Assembly (NCBI GenBank): GCA_026991065.1
Contig: JALXCG010000190.1
Coordinates: forward strand, 1 to 7,489
DNA from: JALXCG01 sp026991065 [NCBI: Gemmatimonadota bacterium]
GTDB taxonomy: Bacteria > GCA-2686955
Length of the DNA stretch: 7,489 bases
Direction of reading: 5' to 3'
In this document: in pieces, positions 1 through 7,158 of the stretch
How positions within the stretch are numbered: position 1 is the stretch's first letter
Layout: each line of letters starts with the position of its first letter
The notes under the pieces: generated by a model
Seen by the model: the letters and a program-made list of their open reading frames with translations, nothing else
The model's database searches: none
What the model was told of the DNA's origin: nothing
Program-made: the position numbers and the translations under genes

Positions 1-1473
1 GTCATTGGCCCACTCCCAAACATTGCCCGCGAGATCGTAGATTGGTTCGGACAGGTTGGGCTGGACGCCGGCCGGGTAGCTGCCGACCGGCGAGGTCCAA
101 CCGACGCACCGCTGGTAGTTCGCCTGCACGCACGCTTGCGGCCCCTCATCGCCCCAAGGAAAGAGCCGCTCATCGTTCCACTGCGCCGCATACTCCCACT
201 CCGCGTCCGTCGGCAGCCGGTAACCGGTGGCTGCGTAGGGATCGCCCTCCGGACCGCACGCCCAGGTCGCGTGGTCGTAGGCACGGGGAAGCCCCTCCGA
301 GAGCGAACGCCAGTCGCAGTAGGCCGCCGCTCCGTACCACGTCACCTGCTTCATGGGGTGATCGGCGTTGAGCCCATAGCCGGCGTCGCGAAGAGAGAAG
401 ACGCCATCGGCAAAGGCAAGCTCGCAGTCGGGGCTGTCCAGGTCCACCAGCTCCTCGCTGCTCCCATCGAGGTTGTCCCGAACCGACGCGGAGGTCGCCG
501 TCACGTAGCCCCGGTCGTAGGCCCACTGCACCAGTTCCAGATACTCCTGGTTCGTCACCTCATACTGGCCGATCCAGAAATCGTGGGTCAGGGTTACCCG
601 GCGCTCGGTCCAGGCACACATCGATCGCCCGTCCCCCATGATGAAAGCACCGGAAGGAACCAACACGAAGGAGCCGGGGGGCGGCGGAGGCTGCACATCC
701 TCACACTCTGCAGCGCATGCATCGCAGTCGATGAGGCGGCAACTGATCGACTGGGCGATCGCCACAAAACAGTCGGCGCATTCGACCCCGGTCCAGCAGT
801 CCCAGCAGTTCACCACCAGGGTCATCGCCCACGAGCACCAGTCGCCGTCCAGAAGGCACTCATTGACGACGCACCAAGTACACCCTGGAGAAGCTTGCGG
901 GTGATCCCCGAGCAAAGACGCGAAGCGCCCCTCCGCAACAGAGCCGTCGTGCGGGTGCAGCGTCTTGACCCGACCGTCGAGCGAGCCAAGCGACACGCGG
1001 GCGACCCGGTTCCGACCCAGATCCACGCCGGTTTCCAGCAGGAAGGGCGCGCGGGGCTTGGTCAGGCGCAGCACCAGAAAGGAGTGGGCTTCCTCCCCCG
1101 CCTCGAGCGCAGCGCCAAAGAGCGAAGCCGGTTTCTCTGACTCGATCGGCACGACCGCCACCCGGTCGGCACCGACCCGCACCACCACGGCGGCACCGAC
1201 CCCGAGGGAGAAGCCGCGCGCCTGAAGGCGCTGATCCAGACCGGCCAGGGGCGGCGCACCGAGGAGACGTTCCACCGCGCCCTTTTGAATCTGGAAGCGC
1301 CCGGCATCCAGGGACTCGGAAAAGACCTCGATCCGGCTCTTTTCAAGACAGCCGGGGGAGAAGGCCAGGCTCCGGACCGGCAGGGATAGCAACACGCAAA
1401 GGGCGGTAAGAACACCCATTCCGGTGCTTCTAAGCGGCTTCAGAAAGGGCAAGGTAGATGGGCGGCGAAACAT
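1..1473 (-). CDS. Exported Cys-rich FGE-sulfatase (SUMF1-like) domain protein, copy 1, 3' end cut by window edge
   Basis: The minus frame is open from ATG at 1473 to the window edge, 491 codons, ending inside the motif GNVWEWAND. About 62 codons plus the stop should lie outside, judging from copy 2, with which it aligns without a single indel (offset 1780 bp). Residues 1-37 are a signal peptide: MFRR start, hydrophobic core VLTALCVLLSLP, and a likely signal peptidase I cut after SLA. Residues ~38-197 form an unrecognised beta-rich domain. C198-C257 is the 12-cysteine module. From ~268 the FGE-sulfatase domain shows VPSG, YEVTNQEY, VTWYGAAAYCDW, GYRLPTDAEWEYAAQW and FPWGDE. The extension starting ten codons upstream (MTGDRRGGC) is rejected because copy 2 has a stop in it. 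The variable tail is not visible. Family assignment is firm; the biological role is unknown, and an extracytoplasmic binding protein is my inference. Confidence 0.9.
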   Translation of the reverse strand, partial: MFRRPSTLPFLKPLRSTGMGVLTALCVLLSLPVRSLAFSPGCLEKSRIEVFSESLDAGRFQIQKGAVERLLGAPPLAGLDQRLQARGFSLGVGAAVVVRVGADRVAVVPIESEKPASLFGAALEAGEEAHSFLVLRLTKPRAPFLLETGVDLGRNRVARVSLGSLDGRVKTLHPHDGSVAEGRFASLLGDHPQASPGCTWCVVNECLLDGDWCSWAMTLVVNCWDCWTGVECADCFVAIAQSISCRLIDCDACAAECEDVQPPPPPGSFVLVPSGAFIMGDGRSMCAWTERRVTLTHDFWIGQYEVTNQEYLELVQWAYDRGYVTATSASVRDNLDGSSEELVDLDSPDCELAFADGVFSLRDAGYGLNADHPMKQVTWYGAAAYCDWRSLSEGLPRAYDHATWACGPEGDPYAATGYRLPTDAEWEYAAQWNDERLFPWGDEGPQACVQANYQRCVGWTSPVGSYPAGVQPNLSEPIYDLAGNVWEWAND

Positions 1474-1477
1474 ACAT

Positions 1478-1483
1478 CCTCCT
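1478..1483 (-). promoter_or_regulatory. Ribosome binding site of copy 1
   Basis: Sense AGGAGG followed by ATGT and the ATG at 1473. The short 4-nt spacing is the same in copies 3 and 4. An overlapping out-of-frame ATG (GGATGT) lies within the site. Confidence 0.7.
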
Positions 1484-1530
1484 CTTCGATCACCTGTCAT
1501 GGTGCGTTGGCCGGACTGCGAAAAGACTAA

Positions 1531-1548
1531 CACCGCAATGGGGCGGCC
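1531..1548 (-). promoter_or_regulatory. Conserved upstream box of copy 1
   Basis: In sense orientation it reads GGCCGCCCCATTGCGGTG, ending exactly 57 nt before the ATG. It contains the dyad CCGC-N6-GCGG. It also has the GG-N10-GC spacing with TTGC of a sigma-54 -24/-12 promoter. Either a promoter or an operator is possible; the conservation is seen, the role is inferred. Confidence 0.45.
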
Positions 1549-1591
1549 TCGGCCTCAATCCCCGCATCCGAGCCCGCTTCGAGATGAACTC

Positions 1592-3253
1592 TCAGTCCAG
1601 CCTGGCCAGTCGGAAGCCGACGCTGGAGGCGTTGAAGTCGGGAACAAAAAAACGGCGGTAGGAGATGTAGAGGACGGAAGCTTGGCTCACCCAATCGCCG
1701 CCCCGCAGGACCCGGGAGAAGCCGTCTGCAGGTCCCCGCGGATCGGTCTCCGGCAAGATCCCCAAGTTGCACCTGGACCAGTCATTGACCCACTCCCAAA
1801 CGTTGCCCGCGAGATCGTAGATTGGTTCGGACAGGTTGGGCTGGACGCCGGCGGGGTAGCTGCCGACCGCAGAGGTCCAGTCGACGCACCGGAGGTAGTT
1901 CGCCTGCACACACTCCTGCGGCCACTCATCCCCCCAAGGATAACGCCGCTCATCGTCCCACTGCGCCGCATACTCCCACTCGGCGTCGGTCGGCAGCCGG
2001 TAACCGGTGGCTGCGTAGGGATCGCCCTCCGGACCGCAGGTCCAGGTCGCGTGGTCGTAGGCACGGGGAAGCTCCTCCGAAAGCGAACGCCAGTCGCAGT
2101 AGGCGGCCGCTCCGTACCACGTCACCTCCTTCATTGGGTGCTTGCCGTTGAGCCCATGTCCAGCGTCGCGAAGAGAGAAGACGCCATCGGCAAAGGCAAG
2201 CTCGCAGTCAGGACTATCCAGGTCCACCAGCTCCTCGGTGCTCCCATCGAGGTTGTCCTGAACCGACGCGGAGGTCGCCGTCACGTAGCCCCGGTCGTAG
2301 GCCCACTGCACCAGTTCCAGATACTCCTGGTTCGTCACCTCATACTGGCCGATCCAGAAATCGTGGGTCAGCGTCACTTGGCGTTCGGTCTTGGCGCACG
2401 CCGATTGCCCATCCCCCATGATGAAGGTGCCGGAAGGAACAAACACAAAAGAACCAGGGGGCGTCGGAGGCAGCACATCCGCACACTCTGCGTTGCAGGC
2501 AGCGCACTCGATGAGGCGGCAACTGATCGACTGGGCGATCGCCACAAAACAATCGGTGCACTCGGCCCCGGTCCAGCAGTCCCAGCAGTTCACCACCAGG
2601 GTCATCGCCCAGGAGCACCAGTCCCCGTCCAGAAGACACTCGTTGACGACGCACCAAGCGCACCCTGGAGAAGCTTGCGGGTGATCCCCGATCAAGGACG
2701 CGAAGCGCCCCTCCGAAATGGATCCGTCCCGCTGGTGCAGCGTCTTGGCCCAACCGTCGAGCGAGCCCAGCGAAACACGGGCGACCCGGCTCCGGCCCAG
2801 ATCCACGCGGGCCTCCAGCAGGAAGGGTGCGCGGCGCCTGGTCAGAGAGAGTACCAGAAAGGTATGGGCGTCCTCCCCCGCCTCAAGCGCGCCGCCAAAG
2901 AGCGAAACCCGCTTCTCGGACTCGATCGGCACGAAGGCCATCCGGTCAGCGCCGACCCTCACCACTACGGCGGCGGCGACCCCGAGGGAGAACCCGCGAG
3001 CCTGAAGACGTTGATCCAAACCGGCCAGAGGCGGCGCACCGAGGAAACGTTCCACCGCGCCCTTGTGACTCTGGAAGCGCCCGGCATCCAGAGACTCGGC
3101 AAAGACCTCGACCTGCCTCTTGTCGAAACAGCTGCCGGAGAGGGCCGGGCTCTGGATCGGCAGCAGGAGCAACACGCAAAGGGCGGCAAGAATGCCGATT
3201 CTGGTGGTTCTGAGCTGCTCGAGAAAGGTCAAAGCAGATGGGCGGCTAAACAT
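1592..3253 (-). CDS. Exported Cys-rich FGE-sulfatase (SUMF1-like) domain protein, copy 2
   Basis: A 553-residue protein with the shared plan. Signal peptide 1-37: MFSRPSALTF, hydrophobic ILAALCVLLLLP, cut after SPA. Residues 38-197 are an unassigned beta-rich domain. Twelve Cys lie between C198 and C257. The FGE-sulfatase fold runs from ~268 to the end with YEVTNQEY, an Asp-rich insert (~325-360), GYRLPTDAEWEYAAQW, YPWGDE, GNVWEW, RVLRGG and GFRLARLD. No C-x4-C pair follows RGG, so the copper-dependent oxidation of sulfatase cysteines by genuine FGE is unlikely. There is no DinB-like domain of the EgtB type either. The start is certain: the codon two before ATG is an in-frame TGA, created by one base that differs from the other leaders. 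Copy 1 is its closest relative. It follows copy 3 after 288 nt and has its own leader, so independent transcription is plausible. Molecular function is not known. Confidence 0.93.
   Translation of the reverse strand: MFSRPSALTFLEQLRTTRIGILAALCVLLLLPIQSPALSGSCFDKRQVEVFAESLDAGRFQSHKGAVERFLGAPPLAGLDQRLQARGFSLGVAAAVVVRVGADRMAFVPIESEKRVSLFGGALEAGEDAHTFLVLSLTRRRAPFLLEARVDLGRSRVARVSLGSLDGWAKTLHQRDGSISEGRFASLIGDHPQASPGCAWCVVNECLLDGDWCSWAMTLVVNCWDCWTGAECTDCFVAIAQSISCRLIECAACNAECADVLPPTPPGSFVFVPSGTFIMGDGQSACAKTERQVTLTHDFWIGQYEVTNQEYLELVQWAYDRGYVTATSASVQDNLDGSTEELVDLDSPDCELAFADGVFSLRDAGHGLNGKHPMKEVTWYGAAAYCDWRSLSEELPRAYDHATWTCGPEGDPYAATGYRLPTDAEWEYAAQWDDERRYPWGDEWPQECVQANYLRCVDWTSAVGSYPAGVQPNLSEPIYDLAGNVWEWVNDWSRCNLGILPETDPRGPADGFSRVLRGGDWVSQASVLYISYRRFFVPDFNASSVGFRLARLD
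1619..1696 (-). other. Hypervariable C-terminal segment of copy 2 (residues 520-545)
   Basis: Twenty-six codons between RVLRGG and GFRLA. Residues include DWVSQ at the start and VPDFNASSV at the end; no Cys. 23 of 26 codons end in C or T. It matches copy 3 at 4/26 and copy 4 at 5/26, although the flanks are nearly identical. Position 14 (Arg) and position 19 (Pro) are the usual fold positions of FGE-sulfatase domains. Confidence 0.75.
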
Positions 3254-3258
3254 ACATC

Positions 3259-3264
3259 ATCCTC
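3259..3264 (-). promoter_or_regulatory. Altered ribosome binding site of copy 2
   Basis: Sense GAGGAT in place of GAGGAGG: a single G-to-T change at 3259 shortens the Shine-Dalgarno match. The same change makes an in-frame TGA two codons before the ATG, which excludes any N-terminal extension and fixes the start at 3253 for the family. Confidence 0.65.
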
Positions 3265-3310
3265 TTCGGTGACCTGTCATGGTGTGTTGGCTGGACTGCA
3301 GAGAGCATAA

Positions 3311-3328
3311 CACCACAATGGGGCGGCC
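3311..3328 (-). promoter_or_regulatory. Conserved upstream box of copy 2
   Basis: Sense GGCCGCCCCATTGTGGTG, 57 nt before the ATG. It differs from the copy 1 box by one base, which breaks the dyad (GTGG for GCGG) and the GC of the sigma-54-like -12 element. If this is a promoter, copy 2 may be weaker than its neighbours. It is followed in sense by TTATG, as in copy 4. Confidence 0.42.
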
Positions 3329-3541
3329 CGGGTGTTTCTCGCGCCTTGCCTTCCGAGTCCCATGTTCGGGCCGGCTTCGAGATCAAGGCACGGAGTCCGC
3401 AGGAAGGCTGTGGTTGCCTTTCAAGGACTCAGCAACGCAGAAGCCGGAGCAGGGGCAAGCGCGGGGCGACGCAAAGACAATGCGCGACGGGCTCCCGGCA
3501 GGGCCATGCGGAGAAGAGAGGAACAGAAGACCAGGGGAATC

Positions 3542-5212
3542 TCAGTCCGACCTGACAGCACGGAATCCGGCGCCGGCAGCGCTGATGTTGGGGTACTGCT
3601 TGCTGCGGAGGCAGTTGCGCGTCGAGGAAACGTAAGCTGCATAACTGCCGCCCCGAACGACCCGGTAGTAGCTGCTTTCAGGTCCCTGCGGATCGGTCTC
3701 TGGTGAATAGCCCAAACTGCAAATCCACCAGTCATTGCACCACTCGCTCACGTTCCCGGCCAAGTCGTAGATCGGCGCGGCGAAGTTGGGCTGAACACCA
3801 CTGGGGTAGCTACCGGCCGGAGCGGTCCAGCCGACGCAGAAGCCATCTTCCCAGAAGTAGTTGGCCAGCGAGCACGCCGGGTTCTCGTTCCCCCAGGGAT
3901 AGATCCGCTCGTCGTCCCATCGCGCCGCATACTCCCACTCCGCGTCCGTGGGCAGCCGGTAGCCGGTGGCCGCGTAGGGGTTTCCCCCGGGACCGCACAC
4001 CCAGTTCGAATGGTCGTAGGCGCGAGGAAGCCCCTCCGCGAGCGAAAGCCAGTCGCAATAGGCCGCCGCGCCGTACCACGTCACTTCCTTCACCGGATGG
4101 CCGGGATTGGTCCCCCCGCGCCCTGCGTCCCGCGACGTGAAGACCCCATCCGCAAACGCGATCTCGCAGTCAGGACTATCCAGGTCCACCAGCGCCTCGG
4201 TGCTCCCATCAAGGTTGTCCTGAACCGATGCGGAGGTCGCCGTCACGTAGCCCCGGTCGTAGGCCCACTGCAACAGATCCAGATACTCCTGATTCGTTAC
4301 CTCGTACTGACCGATCCAGAAATCGTGGGTCAGCGTCACCTGGCGTTCATTGATGCCGCAAGTCGATTTGCCGTCCCCCATGGTGAAGGTGCCGGAAGGA
4401 ACGAACACAAAGGAAAAGGGCGGAGGCAGCAAATCCCTGCACTCTTCATAACAAGCATCGCAGTCGATGAGATAGCAACTGACCGACTGGGCGATGGCGA
4501 CAAAGCAATCGGTGCACTCGGCCCCGGTCCAGCAGTCCCAGCAGTTCACCACCAGGGTCATCGCCCACGAGCACCAATCACCATCCAGAAGGCACTCGTT
4601 GACAACACACCAAGTACACTCCGGCGCTGCCTGCGGGTAGTCCTCGGCGACCAACGATTCGAAGCGTCCCTCGGCAATGGAACCGTCCCGCGAGTGCAGC
4701 GTCTTAACCCGACCGTCGAGCGAGCCCAGCGAGACGCGCGCGACCCGACTCCGGCCCAGATCGACGCCGGCTTCCAGCAGGAAAGGTGCGCGGCGCTTGG
4801 TCATCGGCAGCACCAAAAAGGCGTGGACCTCCTCTCCCGCATCGAGCGCAGCGCCGAAGAGCGAAGCCCGCTTCTCCGACTCGATCGGCAAGAGACCAAC
4901 CTTTTCGGCGCCGGCCCGCACCACCACGGCGGCGCCGATCCCGAGGGAGAACCCGCGCGCCTGAAGACGTTGATCCAAACCGGCCAGAGGCGGCGCACCG
5001 AGAAGTCGCTCCAGCGCCCATTTGTGAACCTGGAAGGCCCCGGCATCGAGAGACTCGGCAGAGACCTCGATCTGGCTCTTGCCGAAACAACCACCGGAGA
5101 GGGCCGTGGCCCGAATCGGCAGCGAGAACAGCATGCAAAGGGCGGCGAGAACACCAGATCGGGTGGTTCTGATCCGTTCAAGCAAGGGCAAAGCGGATAG
5201 GCGGCGAAACAT
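3542..5212 (-). CDS. Exported Cys-rich FGE-sulfatase (SUMF1-like) domain protein, copy 3
   Basis: A 556-residue protein. I use ATG 5212 rather than the upstream in-frame ATG at 5272, because 5212 has AGGAGG 4 nt before it, matches the other copies, and gives a clean signal peptide: MFRRLSALPL, VLAALCMLFSLP, ideal ATA cut after A37. Residues 38-198 are an unassigned beta-rich domain; 199-258 is the 12-Cys module. The FGE-sulfatase domain runs from ~267 to 554, with YEVTNQEY (303-310), GYRLPTDAEWEYAA (417-430), YPWG (438-441), AGNVSEW (485-491), RGG (520-522) and GFR (549-551). Residues 523-548 are hypervariable against copies 2 and 4; they hold one Cys and no C-x4-C catalytic pair. Compared with copy 2 there is a 3-residue longer loop after YPWG and a slightly shorter linker after the Cys module. 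Export and fold are well supported; ligand and partner are unknown. Confidence 0.93.
   Translation of the reverse strand: MFRRLSALPLLERIRTTRSGVLAALCMLFSLPIRATALSGGCFGKSQIEVSAESLDAGAFQVHKWALERLLGAPPLAGLDQRLQARGFSLGIGAAVVVRAGAEKVGLLPIESEKRASLFGAALDAGEEVHAFLVLPMTKRRAPFLLEAGVDLGRSRVARVSLGSLDGRVKTLHSRDGSIAEGRFESLVAEDYPQAAPECTWCVVNECLLDGDWCSWAMTLVVNCWDCWTGAECTDCFVAIAQSVSCYLIDCDACYEECRDLLPPPFSFVFVPSGTFTMGDGKSTCGINERQVTLTHDFWIGQYEVTNQEYLDLLQWAYDRGYVTATSASVQDNLDGSTEALVDLDSPDCEIAFADGVFTSRDAGRGGTNPGHPVKEVTWYGAAAYCDWLSLAEGLPRAYDHSNWVCGPGGNPYAATGYRLPTDAEWEYAARWDDERIYPWGNENPACSLANYFWEDGFCVGWTAPAGSYPSGVQPNFAAPIYDLAGNVSEWCNDWWICSLGYSPETDPQGPESSYYRVVRGGSYAAYVSSTRNCLRSKQYPNISAAGAGFRAVRSD
3569..3646 (-). other. 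Hypervariable C-terminal segment of copy 3 (residues 523-548)
   Basis: Twenty-six codons between RVVRGG and GFRAV, beginning SYAAYV and ending NISAAGA. 21 of 26 codons end in C or T. It matches copy 4 at 6/26. It contains one Cys (position 12), not the paired cysteines of catalytic FGEs. Confidence 0.75.
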
Positions 5213-5216
5213 ACAT

Positions 5217-5222
5217 CCTCCT
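5217..5222 (-). promoter_or_regulatory. Ribosome binding site of copy 3
   Basis: Sense AGGAGG with a 4-nt gap to the ATG at 5212. It decides this start over the in-frame ATG 60 nt upstream, which lies within the conserved upstream box and so probably too close to the promoter to be translated. Confidence 0.7.
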
Positions 5223-5269
5223 CTTTCGTGACCAGTCATGGTGTGTTGGCTCGACTGCGGCGAATGTGA

Positions 5270-5287
5270 CACCGCGGTGGGGCGGCC
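5270..5287 (-). promoter_or_regulatory. Conserved upstream box of copy 3
   Basis: Sense GGCCGCCCCACCGCGGTG, 57 nt before the ATG. The dyad CCGC-N6-GCGG is intact. The GG-N10-GC spacing is kept but TTGC is replaced by CCGC, which argues somewhat against sigma-54 and in favour of a dyad-binding factor. Upstream of the box the sequence has no visible similarity to the other leaders. Confidence 0.42.
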
Positions 5288-5378
5288 AAAGATTCAGGCT
5301 GCGGCCGGGGAAAAGGAGCAAAGCGCGCATCCTCGGCAACGCTCGAAAGCGGCGCCCCACCCTCCGCTCCACTGGTGA

Positions 5379-5413
5379 GGGGGCTTGCCACGCTCCGCTC
5401 GCTTGCAGCCCCC
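5379..5413 (-). other. Second GC-rich inverted repeat between copies 4 and 3
   Basis: Sense arms GGGGGCT and AGCCCCC pair over 7 bp around a 21-nt loop that itself contains GAGCGGAGCG. Together with the neighbouring CCCGGGCCCG-rich sequence it makes 5379-5463 a strongly structured spacer. It could halt or stabilise the copy 4 transcript. No similar structure was seen in the other spacers. Confidence 0.35.
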
Positions 5414-5445
5414 GGGCCCGCGCCGCTCCGGGAGGGGCGCCGGGG

Positions 5446-5463
5446 AGGCCGCTGACGCGGCCT
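5446..5463 (-). terminator. GC hairpin after copy 4 (terminator or other structure)
   Basis: Sense AGGCCGC, loop GTCA, GCGGCCT: a perfect 7-bp stem with a 4-nt loop, 24 nt after the stop of copy 4. No U-run follows, so it is not a canonical intrinsic terminator. A stem of this size with a 4-nt loop just past a variable 3' end also resembles the hairpins that follow DGR variable regions. The structure is clear, the role is not. Confidence 0.45.
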
Positions 5464-5487
5464 TTCAGGAGAAACAGAGAACAAACT

Positions 5488-7158
5488 TCAGTCCGACCTG
5501 GCAAGGCGGAAGCCGACGATACTGTCACCGGAGCCGCCGAGGCGTCTACTACGGGAGGAGACGCGCATGTAGGAGGGATAGACACTGTAAGCGCCACCCC
5601 GCGTAACCCGGTAGAAACCGTCTCCGGCTCCTGTTGGATCGGTTTCCGGTGAAGTGCCTAGATCACACTCGTACAGGTCATTGCACCACTCCTCCACATT
5701 CCCGCCCAGGTCGTAGATCGGGGCGGCGAGGTTGGGCTGAACACCGGCGGGGTAGCTGCCGACCGGAGTGGTCCAGCCGACGCAAAGACCGTCGTAAGAA
5801 TAGTTGGCCAGCGAGCATGTGGGGCTCTCGTTGCCCCACGGGTAGATCCTCTCGTCGTCCCACTGCGCCGCATACTCCCATTCGGCATCTGTCGGCAGCC
5901 GGTAACCGTTGGCCTTGTAGGGGTTGCCATCCAGGCCGCACTGCCAGTCGGAGTGGTCGTAGGCACGGCGAAGCCCTTCCGAGACCGAAAGCCAGTCGCA
6001 GTAGGCCACCGCGCCGAACCATGTCACTTCCGTCACCGGATGGTCTGGGTTGATCCCGTGTCCCGCGTCGCGCAGGGTGAACACCCCTCCGGAGAATGCG
6101 AGTTCGCAGTAAGGACTGTCCAGGTCCACCAGCTCCTTCTTGCTACCATCGACGTGATCCTGAACCGAAGAGGAGGTCGCTGTCACGTAGCCCTGGTCGT
6201 AGGCCCACTGCACCAGGTCCAGATACTCCTGGTTGGTCACCTCATACTGGCCGATCCAGAAGTCATGGGTCAGCGTCACCAGGCGCTCATCGACACCGCA
6301 ACGCGCCATACCGTCCCCCATACTGAAGGTGCCGGAAGGAACGAACACAAAGGAGCCAGAGGGCGGCGGGGGCAACACATTTTCACACTCTGCATCGCAT
6401 GCATCGCACTCGACGAGACGGCAACTGACAGACTGGGCGATCGCTACGAAACAGTCGATGCAACCACCCCCGGTCCAGCAGTCCCAGCAGTTCACCACCA
6501 GAGTCATCGCCCACGAGCACCAATCGCCGCTCAGAAGGCATTCGTTGACAACGCACCAACTACACTCCGGAGAAGCTTTCGGGTAATTCCCCGCGACCAA
6601 GGACTCGAAGCGCCCCGCCGAAATGGAGCCGTCCTGCGGGAGCAGTGTCTTGACCCGACCGTCGAGCGAGCCAAGCGACACGCGGGCGACCCGGCTCTGG
6701 CCCAGATCCACGCCGGATTCCAGCAAGAAGGGGACGCGGCGCTTGGTCAGGGGCAGCACCAGAAAGGCGTGGGGGTCCTCTCCCGCCTCGAGCGCAGCGC
6801 CAAAGAGCGAAACCCGCTTCTCCGACTCGATCGGTACGAAAGCGATCCGGTCGGCGCCGACCCGCACCACCACTGCGGCGCCGATCCCGAGGGAGAAGCC
6901 GCGCGCCTGAAGTCGTTGATCCAAACCGGCCAGAGGCGGCGCACCGAGGAGGCGTTCCACCGCGCCCTTTTGAATCTGGAAGTGCCCGGCATCCAGCGAC
7001 TCGGCAAAGACCTCGATCCGGCTTTTGTCAAAACAGCCAGGGGAGAAGGCGAAACTCCGGATCGGCAGCGAGAGCAAAACACATAGGGCGGCGAGAACAC
7101 CCACTCCGGTGGTTCTGAACCGCGCAGGAAAAGGCAAAACAGATGGGCGGCGAAACAT
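5488..7158 (-). CDS. Exported Cys-rich FGE-sulfatase (SUMF1-like) domain protein, copy 4 (first in transcription order)
   Basis: A 556-residue protein. The frame stays open upstream to the right edge of the window. I choose ATG 7158 because it has AGGAGG 4 nt upstream, matches the other starts and gives a signal peptide (MFRRPSVLPF, VLAALCVLLSLP, cut after SFA at 37). The upstream extension is an Arg-rich, low-complexity translation with no paralog counterpart. Layout: unassigned beta-rich domain 38-198, 12-Cys module 199-258, FGE-sulfatase domain ~269-554 with YEVTNQEY, GYRLPTDAEWEYAAQW, YPWGNE, GNVEEW, RVTRGG and GFRLARSD. There is no Cys in the 26-residue tail 523-548, so it cannot act as a classical FGE. 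Its Cys module differs slightly (GGGC for GAEC). A strong GC hairpin follows the stop by 24 nt. It is the most diverged leader of the four but keeps the same box-to-start distance. Function unknown; a secreted recognition or structural role is inferred. Confidence 0.92.
   Translation of the reverse strand: MFRRPSVLPFPARFRTTGVGVLAALCVLLSLPIRSFAFSPGCFDKSRIEVFAESLDAGHFQIQKGAVERLLGAPPLAGLDQRLQARGFSLGIGAAVVVRVGADRIAFVPIESEKRVSLFGAALEAGEDPHAFLVLPLTKRRVPFLLESGVDLGQSRVARVSLGSLDGRVKTLLPQDGSISAGRFESLVAGNYPKASPECSWCVVNECLLSGDWCSWAMTLVVNCWDCWTGGGCIDCFVAIAQSVSCRLVECDACDAECENVLPPPPSGSFVFVPSGTFSMGDGMARCGVDERLVTLTHDFWIGQYEVTNQEYLDLVQWAYDQGYVTATSSSVQDHVDGSKKELVDLDSPYCELAFSGGVFTLRDAGHGINPDHPVTEVTWFGAVAYCDWLSVSEGLRRAYDHSDWQCGLDGNPYKANGYRLPTDAEWEYAAQWDDERIYPWGNESPTCSLANYSYDGLCVGWTTPVGSYPAGVQPNLAAPIYDLGGNVEEWCNDLYECDLGTSPETDPTGAGDGFYRVTRGGAYSVYPSYMRVSSRSRRLGGSGDSIVGFRLARSD
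5515..5592 (-). other. Hypervariable C-terminal segment of copy 4 (residues 523-548)
   Basis: Twenty-six codons between RVTRGG and GFRLA, beginning AYSVYP and ending GSGDSIV, with a basic stretch RSRR in the middle. 24 of 26 codons end in C or T. No Cys. Length is identical to the other two tails. Confidence 0.75.

What the first reader, a model, noticed from the sequence alone, without database searches (positions are those of the whole stretch)
1619..5592. Hypervariable 26-residue C-terminal patch in otherwise near-identical paralogs: possible DGR-type or other targeted diversification
Seen: between invariant RGG and GFR, copies 2, 3 and 4 have exactly 26 residues but only 4-6 matches per pair and 2 invariant positions (7 Ser, 14 Arg). 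Of 26 codons, position 1 is invariant in 6, position 2 in 4 and position 3 in 11, the reverse of purifying selection. 68 of 78 codons are NNY. Known: DGR target proteins often end in a C-type-lectin/FGE-sulfatase fold whose variable residues lie here and derive from AAY codons. Inference: a diversified ligand-binding surface. Against a DGR: no RT or template repeat in the window, and columns such as CAA/TAC/TAT and TTT/AAG/AGA cannot all come from one template. High GC also favours C-ending codons.
Basis: partly seen in the sequence, partly recalled or inferred. Interest (0 to 1): 0.85.

Follow-up and report, generated by a model that had tools for sequence, protein, structure and literature searches.

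The report
Protein patches rewritten by a retroelement
A family of at least a dozen probably secreted bacterial proteins differs most in one 26-residue surface patch whose DNA bears the marks of a diversity-generating retroelement, a known system that deliberately scrambles binding sites, although the scrambling machinery itself was not found in this incomplete genome.

Summary
The observation's numbers are reproduced. The window is one whole contig of an 83.8% complete genome, G000, with four tandem FGE-sulfatase (PF03781) paralogs. Twelve close family genes in G000 keep a complete 26-residue loop. Loop length and the places of its variable columns are ordinary for FGE proteins and prove little. 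The third codon base discriminates: given the amino acid, fourfold codons end in C/T 138 of 161 times against 90 expected; 0 of 2000 draws of 12 control loops score as high. Codons for different residues share their third base more often than in the gene body: in the best of 66 pairs 0 of 16 differ, against 33 of 64. A genome with a DGR shows the same. Complete DGRs with FGE targets occur in Eisenbacteria, one target 54% identical to window copy 2. No RT, bAvd or template was found in G000. Best reading: DGR variable repeats whose cassette is unassembled or lost. The window's own three copies lack the shared-third-base pattern.

The parts
1..1473 (-). Copy 1, FGE-domain target-type protein, cut by the contig end at residue 491, before its variable patch
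1592..3253 (-). Copy 2, 553 aa: N-terminal part with a signal-like start (by eye), Cys-rich middle, C-terminal FGE-sulfatase domain (residues 268-551)
1619..1696 (-). Variable patch (putative variable repeat) of copy 2, 26 codons, 23 NNY
3542..5212 (-). Copy 3, 556 aa, same architecture
3569..3646 (-). Variable patch of copy 3, 26 codons, 21 NNY
5488..7158 (-). Copy 4, 556 aa, same architecture
5515..5592 (-). Variable patch of copy 4, 26 codons, 24 NNY

Best explanation
The 26-residue patches are variable repeats of FGE-type (C-type-lectin fold) target proteins that were written by a diversity-generating retroelement. A DGR reverse transcriptase copies a template repeat, misreads its adenines, and the cDNA replaces the matching end of a target gene; AAC/AAT (Asn) template codons thus become NNC/NNT while the third base and the non-A scaffold are copied faithfully. 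In this genome at least 12 dispersed and tandem target genes were served, most of them necessarily in trans. Shown: the fold, the family, the third-base signature, and DGRs with homologous targets in other genomes. Inferred: that the cassette exists or existed in this organism (missing from the 84% complete assembly, or lost), that the patch binds a ligand, and that the proteins are secreted. The window's own three copies look like older writings, or writings from more than one template; the C612 and C174 copies look more recent.
For: (a) Fourfold codons in the 12 loops end in C/T 138 of 161 times; 90.0 expected after stratifying by locus and codon box, odds ratio 5.5, z 8.2; the three window loops alone 39 of 43, expected 23.9, z 5.0. 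(b) At columns where at least one of four known templates has Asn: odds ratio 6.4 in G000 (12 loops), 5.7 in DGR-bearing genomes (9 loops), 1.7 in 55 control loops; 0 of 2000 draws of 12 control loops reach the G000 whole-loop z. (c) Where two genes code different residues, third bases differ 532/1271 (0.42) in the loop and 3184/5346 (0.60) in the body, 56 of 66 pairs in this direction; G043, which has a DGR, 0.36 and 0.63; far controls 0.71 and 0.74; a Krumholzibacteria set 0.72 and 0.70. (d) C612 against C174: 0 of 16 such codons differ in the loop, 33 of 64 in the body, p 5.6e-5, best of 66 pairs. (e) Of 288 overlapping 26-codon body blocks none is as low as the loop (lowest 0.47). (f) Loop distance hardly follows gene distance: rho 0.10 for the whole loop, 0.26 for its 22 variable columns, against 0.76 for the 74 other variable columns and 0.54 on average for random sets of 22 of them, 15 of 500 sets being as low. 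(g) L073: FGE target 54% identical to copy 2 over residues 262-551, bAvd, template and RT; template against its own variable repeat 0 non-A and 5 A mismatches in 60 nt; against one on another contig 0 and 16.
Against: No RVT_1 match in G000 at E up to 10, none with a DGR RT query, no bAvd at E up to 1. Template patterns found only known loops and one further tail on C458, nothing or one 3-mismatch site where the reversed pattern gives two. An inferred-template query that did find the templates of G041 and G056 gave 22 matches in G000: the best are loops, and six weak sites that I checked (one of them) have at most 8 Asn codons in 32, against 12-17 in four known templates. Among the three window copies alone third bases differ as often in the loop (28/63) as in the body (83/186); without C612 and C174 the contrast falls to 0.50 against 0.60; over all 12 genes loop third bases still differ at 40% of codons. 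Controls carry a mild version of the bias (odds ratio 1.3 whole loop, 1.7-2.0 at Asn columns), and single loops of some genomes without an RT of E below 1e-50 are strongly biased (G048, G053, G086). At the strictest columns G000 (3.3) is nearer the controls (2.0) than the DGR genomes (11.8). The loops are paralogs, so their codons are not independent.
Confidence: 0.74

Rival explanations
1. Ordinary diversifying selection by point mutation on a ligand-binding loop that is variable in FGE proteins generally; no retroelement ever involved.
For: The loop length and the variable columns are generic: sets of 12 control loops give a mean rho of 0.68 with known template Asn columns, and 81 of 1000 sets reach the G000 value of 0.80. 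Other columns of the same domain vary as well. No cassette found. The window's own copies lack third-base sharing.
Against: Point mutation under selection gives no reason for C/T third bases given the amino acid, nor for third bases more alike in the loop than in the body of the same pairs; variable body columns do not show the bias.
Confidence: 0.14
2. Fossil: the loops were written by a DGR that this lineage has since lost; they now evolve by ordinary mutation. This is a sub-case of the best explanation, whose 0.74 covers it and the live case.
For: No RT, bAvd or template found. In the family relative G001, which has four RVT_1 matches, the one classified is of the group II intron type. Window copies lack a fresh template pattern. 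Precedent: T. denticola isolates with target genes but neither RT nor TR (PMC4891356, passages).
Against: C612/C174 loops share the third base at all 16 replaced codons although their bodies differ at 39% of third positions, so writing went on after these genes diverged.
Confidence: 0.35
3. Gene conversion homogenises the bodies while the tails escape, or tails are shuffled between paralogs as cassettes.
For: Tandem copies with blocks of up to 92% DNA identity in the window.
Against: Escaping tails should be more, not less, diverged at third positions (0.40 in the loop, 0.47 in the body). The two most similar loops of the 12 still differ at 62% of residues. A search for mosaic tracts was not made.
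Confidence: 0.04

Closest known systems
DGR of Candidatus Eisenbacteria Dive96_bin2.117 (L073, JAJRWB010000054.1)
   Same: FGE target 54% identical to window copy 2 over residues 262-551, same loop register, a second variable repeat on another contig.
   Different: Has bAvd, template and RT beside the target; its two variable repeats match the template with no non-A mismatch in 60 nt, whereas the window loops differ from one another at many third bases.
Treponema denticola variable protein (TvpA, PDB 2y3c)
   Same: Same FGE/C-type-lectin fold by sequence profile (E 1.5e-23) and by structure (Foldseek E 2.7e-17); a DGR target (PMC10907252, passage).
   Different: Parts outside the domain were not compared.
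T. denticola isolates with target genes but no core DGR (PMC4891356, passages read)
   Same: Variable repeats without RT or template in the genome.
   Different: Their DGR is known from sister isolates; copy numbers per isolate were not seen in the passages.
Thiohalocapsa PB-PSB1 (PMC10907252, passages read)
   Same: Many targets in one genome (15), some possibly served in trans.
   Different: Nine DGR loci found; targets are associated with conflict systems, some with NTPase domains.
Formylglycine-generating enzyme SUMF1 (1y1g, 2aft)
   Same: Fold.
   Different: The sites of Cys336/Cys341 (numbers from PDB titles, catalytic role recalled) fall inside the patch (alignment) and are not kept in the 12 loops; enzyme activity is unlikely (inference).

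Membership tests
FGE-sulfatase domain family (PF03781) | Profile match above the gathering score | tested here: met
   109.6-151.6 bits against a cut-off of 23.3 in 4 of 4 copies
FGE-sulfatase domain family (PF03781) | FGE fold | tested here: met
   AlphaFold2 model of the copy 2 domain, mean pLDDT 93.3; top PDB matches are FGE structures. A first model from 12 paralogs failed, pLDDT 38.9
Diversity-generating retroelement | DGR reverse transcriptase in the genome | tested here: not met
   No match in the 83.8% complete assembly; the same RT query matches at E below 1e-50 in 5 of 46 other genomes, its own included
Diversity-generating retroelement | Template repeat, near copy of the variable repeat | tested here: not met
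   the queries do find the templates of G041 and G056
Diversity-generating retroelement | Accessory gene (bAvd; not universal) | tested here: not met
   PF22296 absent in G000, over the cut-off in G041, G056 and G043; absent also in G026, which has a DGR
Diversity-generating retroelement | Variation confined to template adenines | tested here: inconclusive
   No template to compare; indirect third-base tests positive, window-only sharing test negative
Diversity-generating retroelement | Target with C-type-lectin fold, variable repeat at its C-terminus | tested here: met
Diversity-generating retroelement | Variable repeat differs within a population | not testable with these tools
   No reads or second strain of the species at hand

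The most novel reading that the evidence does not exclude
One trans-acting DGR serves a dozen or more secreted, partly tandem FGE-type targets in a single cell of a poorly sampled phylum, so that duplication of target genes and repeated rewriting of their tails together build a large, private repertoire of surface binders.
Probability: 0.4. Interest if true: 0.65.

Novelty: new member of a known kind. Interest (0 to 1): 0.52.

Why it matters
[quoted passage not shown] The third-base tests used here look for written tails from paralogs alone, without RT or template, and could be run on fragmented genomes. If right, this lineage keeps an unusually large set of targets for one diversification system. 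Searches of the held papers for 'diversity-generating retroelement(s)' together with Eisenbacteria or Krumholzibacteri returned 0 papers.

Tried and rejected
Register of variable columns as proof of DGR origin: rejected, because control loops show nearly the same register (that control set of 56 was not cleaned of all loci from DGR genomes; the cleaned set of 55 is). Raw NNY fraction as proof: weak, since controls have 729/935 at the same columns against 180/204. Exact length 26 as proof: rejected, common in FGE proteins of other genomes. AlphaFold2 with the 12 paralogs only failed; a domain alignment of 41 worked. A scan of viral contigs gave one distant hit. RTs of G001 as the missing RT: the one classified, L054, is group_II_RT_mat over NCBIfam's cut-off and has a GIIM domain; the others were not classified.

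Assembly edges: in 7 of the 9 contigs that bear close members of this family (C190, C593, C174, C831, C652, C372, C458; not C550, C612) a family gene is cut by a contig end; the fragments on C394 and C182 and the distant FGE genes of C572, C466 and C547 were left out of this count. A cassette next to such a gene could easily be missing; this is an argument, not a test. Among the fetched G000 contigs only C372's first 99 bases recur elsewhere (in C652).
Full report
What is there. The window is the whole contig C190 (7489 bases) of a genome of 4.14 Mb in 902 contigs, 83.8% complete. It carries four tandem minus-strand genes of about 555 codons, the first cut by the contig end. All four match FGE-sulfatase (PF03781) over the C-terminal half. 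The N-terminal half begins with what looks by eye like a Sec signal and holds a Cys-rich stretch without a Pfam match. Copies 3, 4 and 1 are 74, 73 and 84% identical to copy 2.

The observation. The paralogs are less alike than stated, and the argument that some codon columns exclude one template is wrong, since AAA in a template may become any codon; lysine codons are reported as hypervariable in T. denticola DGRs (PMC4891356, passages).

The family in this genome. A protein search found 26 matches in G000. Twelve close family genes have a complete 26-residue loop: three in the window, and others on C550, C612, C831, C652 (2), C593 and C174 (3). A further loop of 32 residues sits at the end of C458. 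C182 holds a remnant whose tail reads on only across a change of frame. Rows dropped from the 12-gene counts: the more distant FGE genes of C572, C466 and C547, and C458; three loops of this dropped set were counted apart (27 of 36, odds ratio 1.6).

What does not discriminate. FGE proteins of other genomes have loops of 24-31 residues, most often 26-27. Their variable columns fall in nearly the same places: 1000 random sets of 12 out of 56 control loops gave a mean rho of 0.68 with the Asn columns of four known templates, against 0.80 here; 81 sets reached 0.80.

What does. First, the third base. Stratified by locus and codon box, the loops' fourfold codons end in C or T 138 of 161 times where 90.0 are expected (odds ratio 5.5, z 8.2). 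Controls: 644 of 1086 where 590.5 are expected, in 83 loops (1.3). At template-Asn columns, loops of DGR genomes have 44 of 54 where 27.6 are expected (5.3), G000 72 of 83 where 46.3 are expected (5.9), controls 263 of 391 where 220.4 are expected (1.7). A cleaned repeat gave the same picture, and 0 of 2000 draws of 12 control loops reached the G000 whole-loop value. At the strictest columns, however, G000 (3.3) stands between controls (2.0) and DGR genomes (11.8), nearer the controls. Second, template-like sharing. Codons that differ in meaning between two paralogs differ at the third base in 42% of cases in the loop and 60% in the body; 56 of 66 pairs point the same way. Genome G043, which has a DGR, gives 36% and 63%; control sets G066, G057, far and Krumholzibacteria give 61/65, 57/63, 71/74 and 72/70%; G060, without an RT of E below 1e-50, is intermediate at 51/64%. 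The best single pair is C612 with C174: their bodies differ at 39% of third positions, their loops at 2 of 26, although 16 residues differ. Without C612 and C174 the effect is smaller, 50 and 60%. For the three window copies alone it is absent, 44 and 45%, although their C/T bias is strong, 39 of 43. Third, loss of pedigree: loop distances correlate weakly with gene distance (rho 0.10; 0.26 for its variable columns), the other variable columns strongly (0.76; 0.54 on average for sets of equal size, 15 of 500 being as low as the loop).

Relatives. A scan of named genomes kept the best 80 of 326 matches, 78 loci, with many Candidatus Eisenbacteria among the nearest. One of them, L073, is a complete DGR: FGE target, bAvd (PF22296), template, RT. 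Its template reads SWNNNENNLRSANRNNNNPNNTNNNN between GG and GFR. Two further Eisenbacteria genomes, G043 and G056, and G026 have DGRs with FGE targets and templates of the same register. A DGR-type RT (E below 1e-50) was found in 5 of 46 genomes searched through these loci, that of the query included; G082 has a fragmented match (1.6e-37).

The missing cassette. RVT_1, a DGR RT query and bAvd all failed in G000. Template queries gave loops, nothing, or weak sites; six weak sites were checked and have at most 8 Asn codons in 32, against 12-17 in the known templates; the remaining weak matches were not examined. The inferred-template query found the templates of G041 and G056 at E near 1e-14. 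G001, the only other genome held of this phylum, has four RVT_1 matches; the one classified is of the group II intron type. With 16% of the genome absent and contigs breaking inside this gene family, absence is weak evidence.

Fold and function. The domain model (pLDDT 93.3) matches FGE enzymes and the DGR target TvpA. The sites of the two FGE cysteines 336 and 341 fall in the patch and are not kept (their catalytic role is recalled). A binding rather than catalytic role is inferred.

Verdict. The tails are most likely DGR variable repeats. I file the genes as FGE-family proteins that behave like DGR targets and not as a DGR, because the RT and template were sought and not found in this assembly.

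Noticed in passing
L073 (JAJRWB010000054.1) 2-3004; L131: Complete DGR in Candidatus Eisenbacteria with a second variable repeat on another contig that fits the same template over 60 nt without a non-A mismatch.
   Followed up: partly
L184 (G043:C131), L185 (G056:C213), L053 (G026:C252): Three more DGRs with FGE targets; in G043 eleven FGE loops taken together carry the third-base signature, several with an LRCA scaffold that differs from the one template found.
   Followed up: partly
window 3339-3500: Intergenic stretch between copies 2 and 3 is a dispersed repeat, 77-85% identical to stretches on C174, C372, C572 and on a contig of the other genus G001.
   Followed up: partly
L146 (G000:C458), contig end, minus strand: Tail of a further copy whose loop has 32 residues, perhaps through a short internal duplication; 29 of 32 codons NNY.
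   Followed up: no
L042 (G000:C182) about 4564-4734, minus strand: Remnant of another family tail, readable only across a change of frame.
   Followed up: partly
copies 2-4, FGE domain outside the patch: 74 further columns of the 12-gene alignment are amino-acid-variable without the C/T-ending bias: ordinary variation in the same domain.
   Followed up: partly
L034 (C652) and L037 (C372): The first 99 bases of C372 recur near the end of C652, both inside an FGE gene; the contigs are probably neighbours.
   Followed up: no
L059 (IMG/VR contig) 5001-5687: A viral contig encodes an FGE protein with the tail SWGSDAQNLRSAYRNYNSPGNRFSTL, which resembles a DGR target.
   Followed up: no
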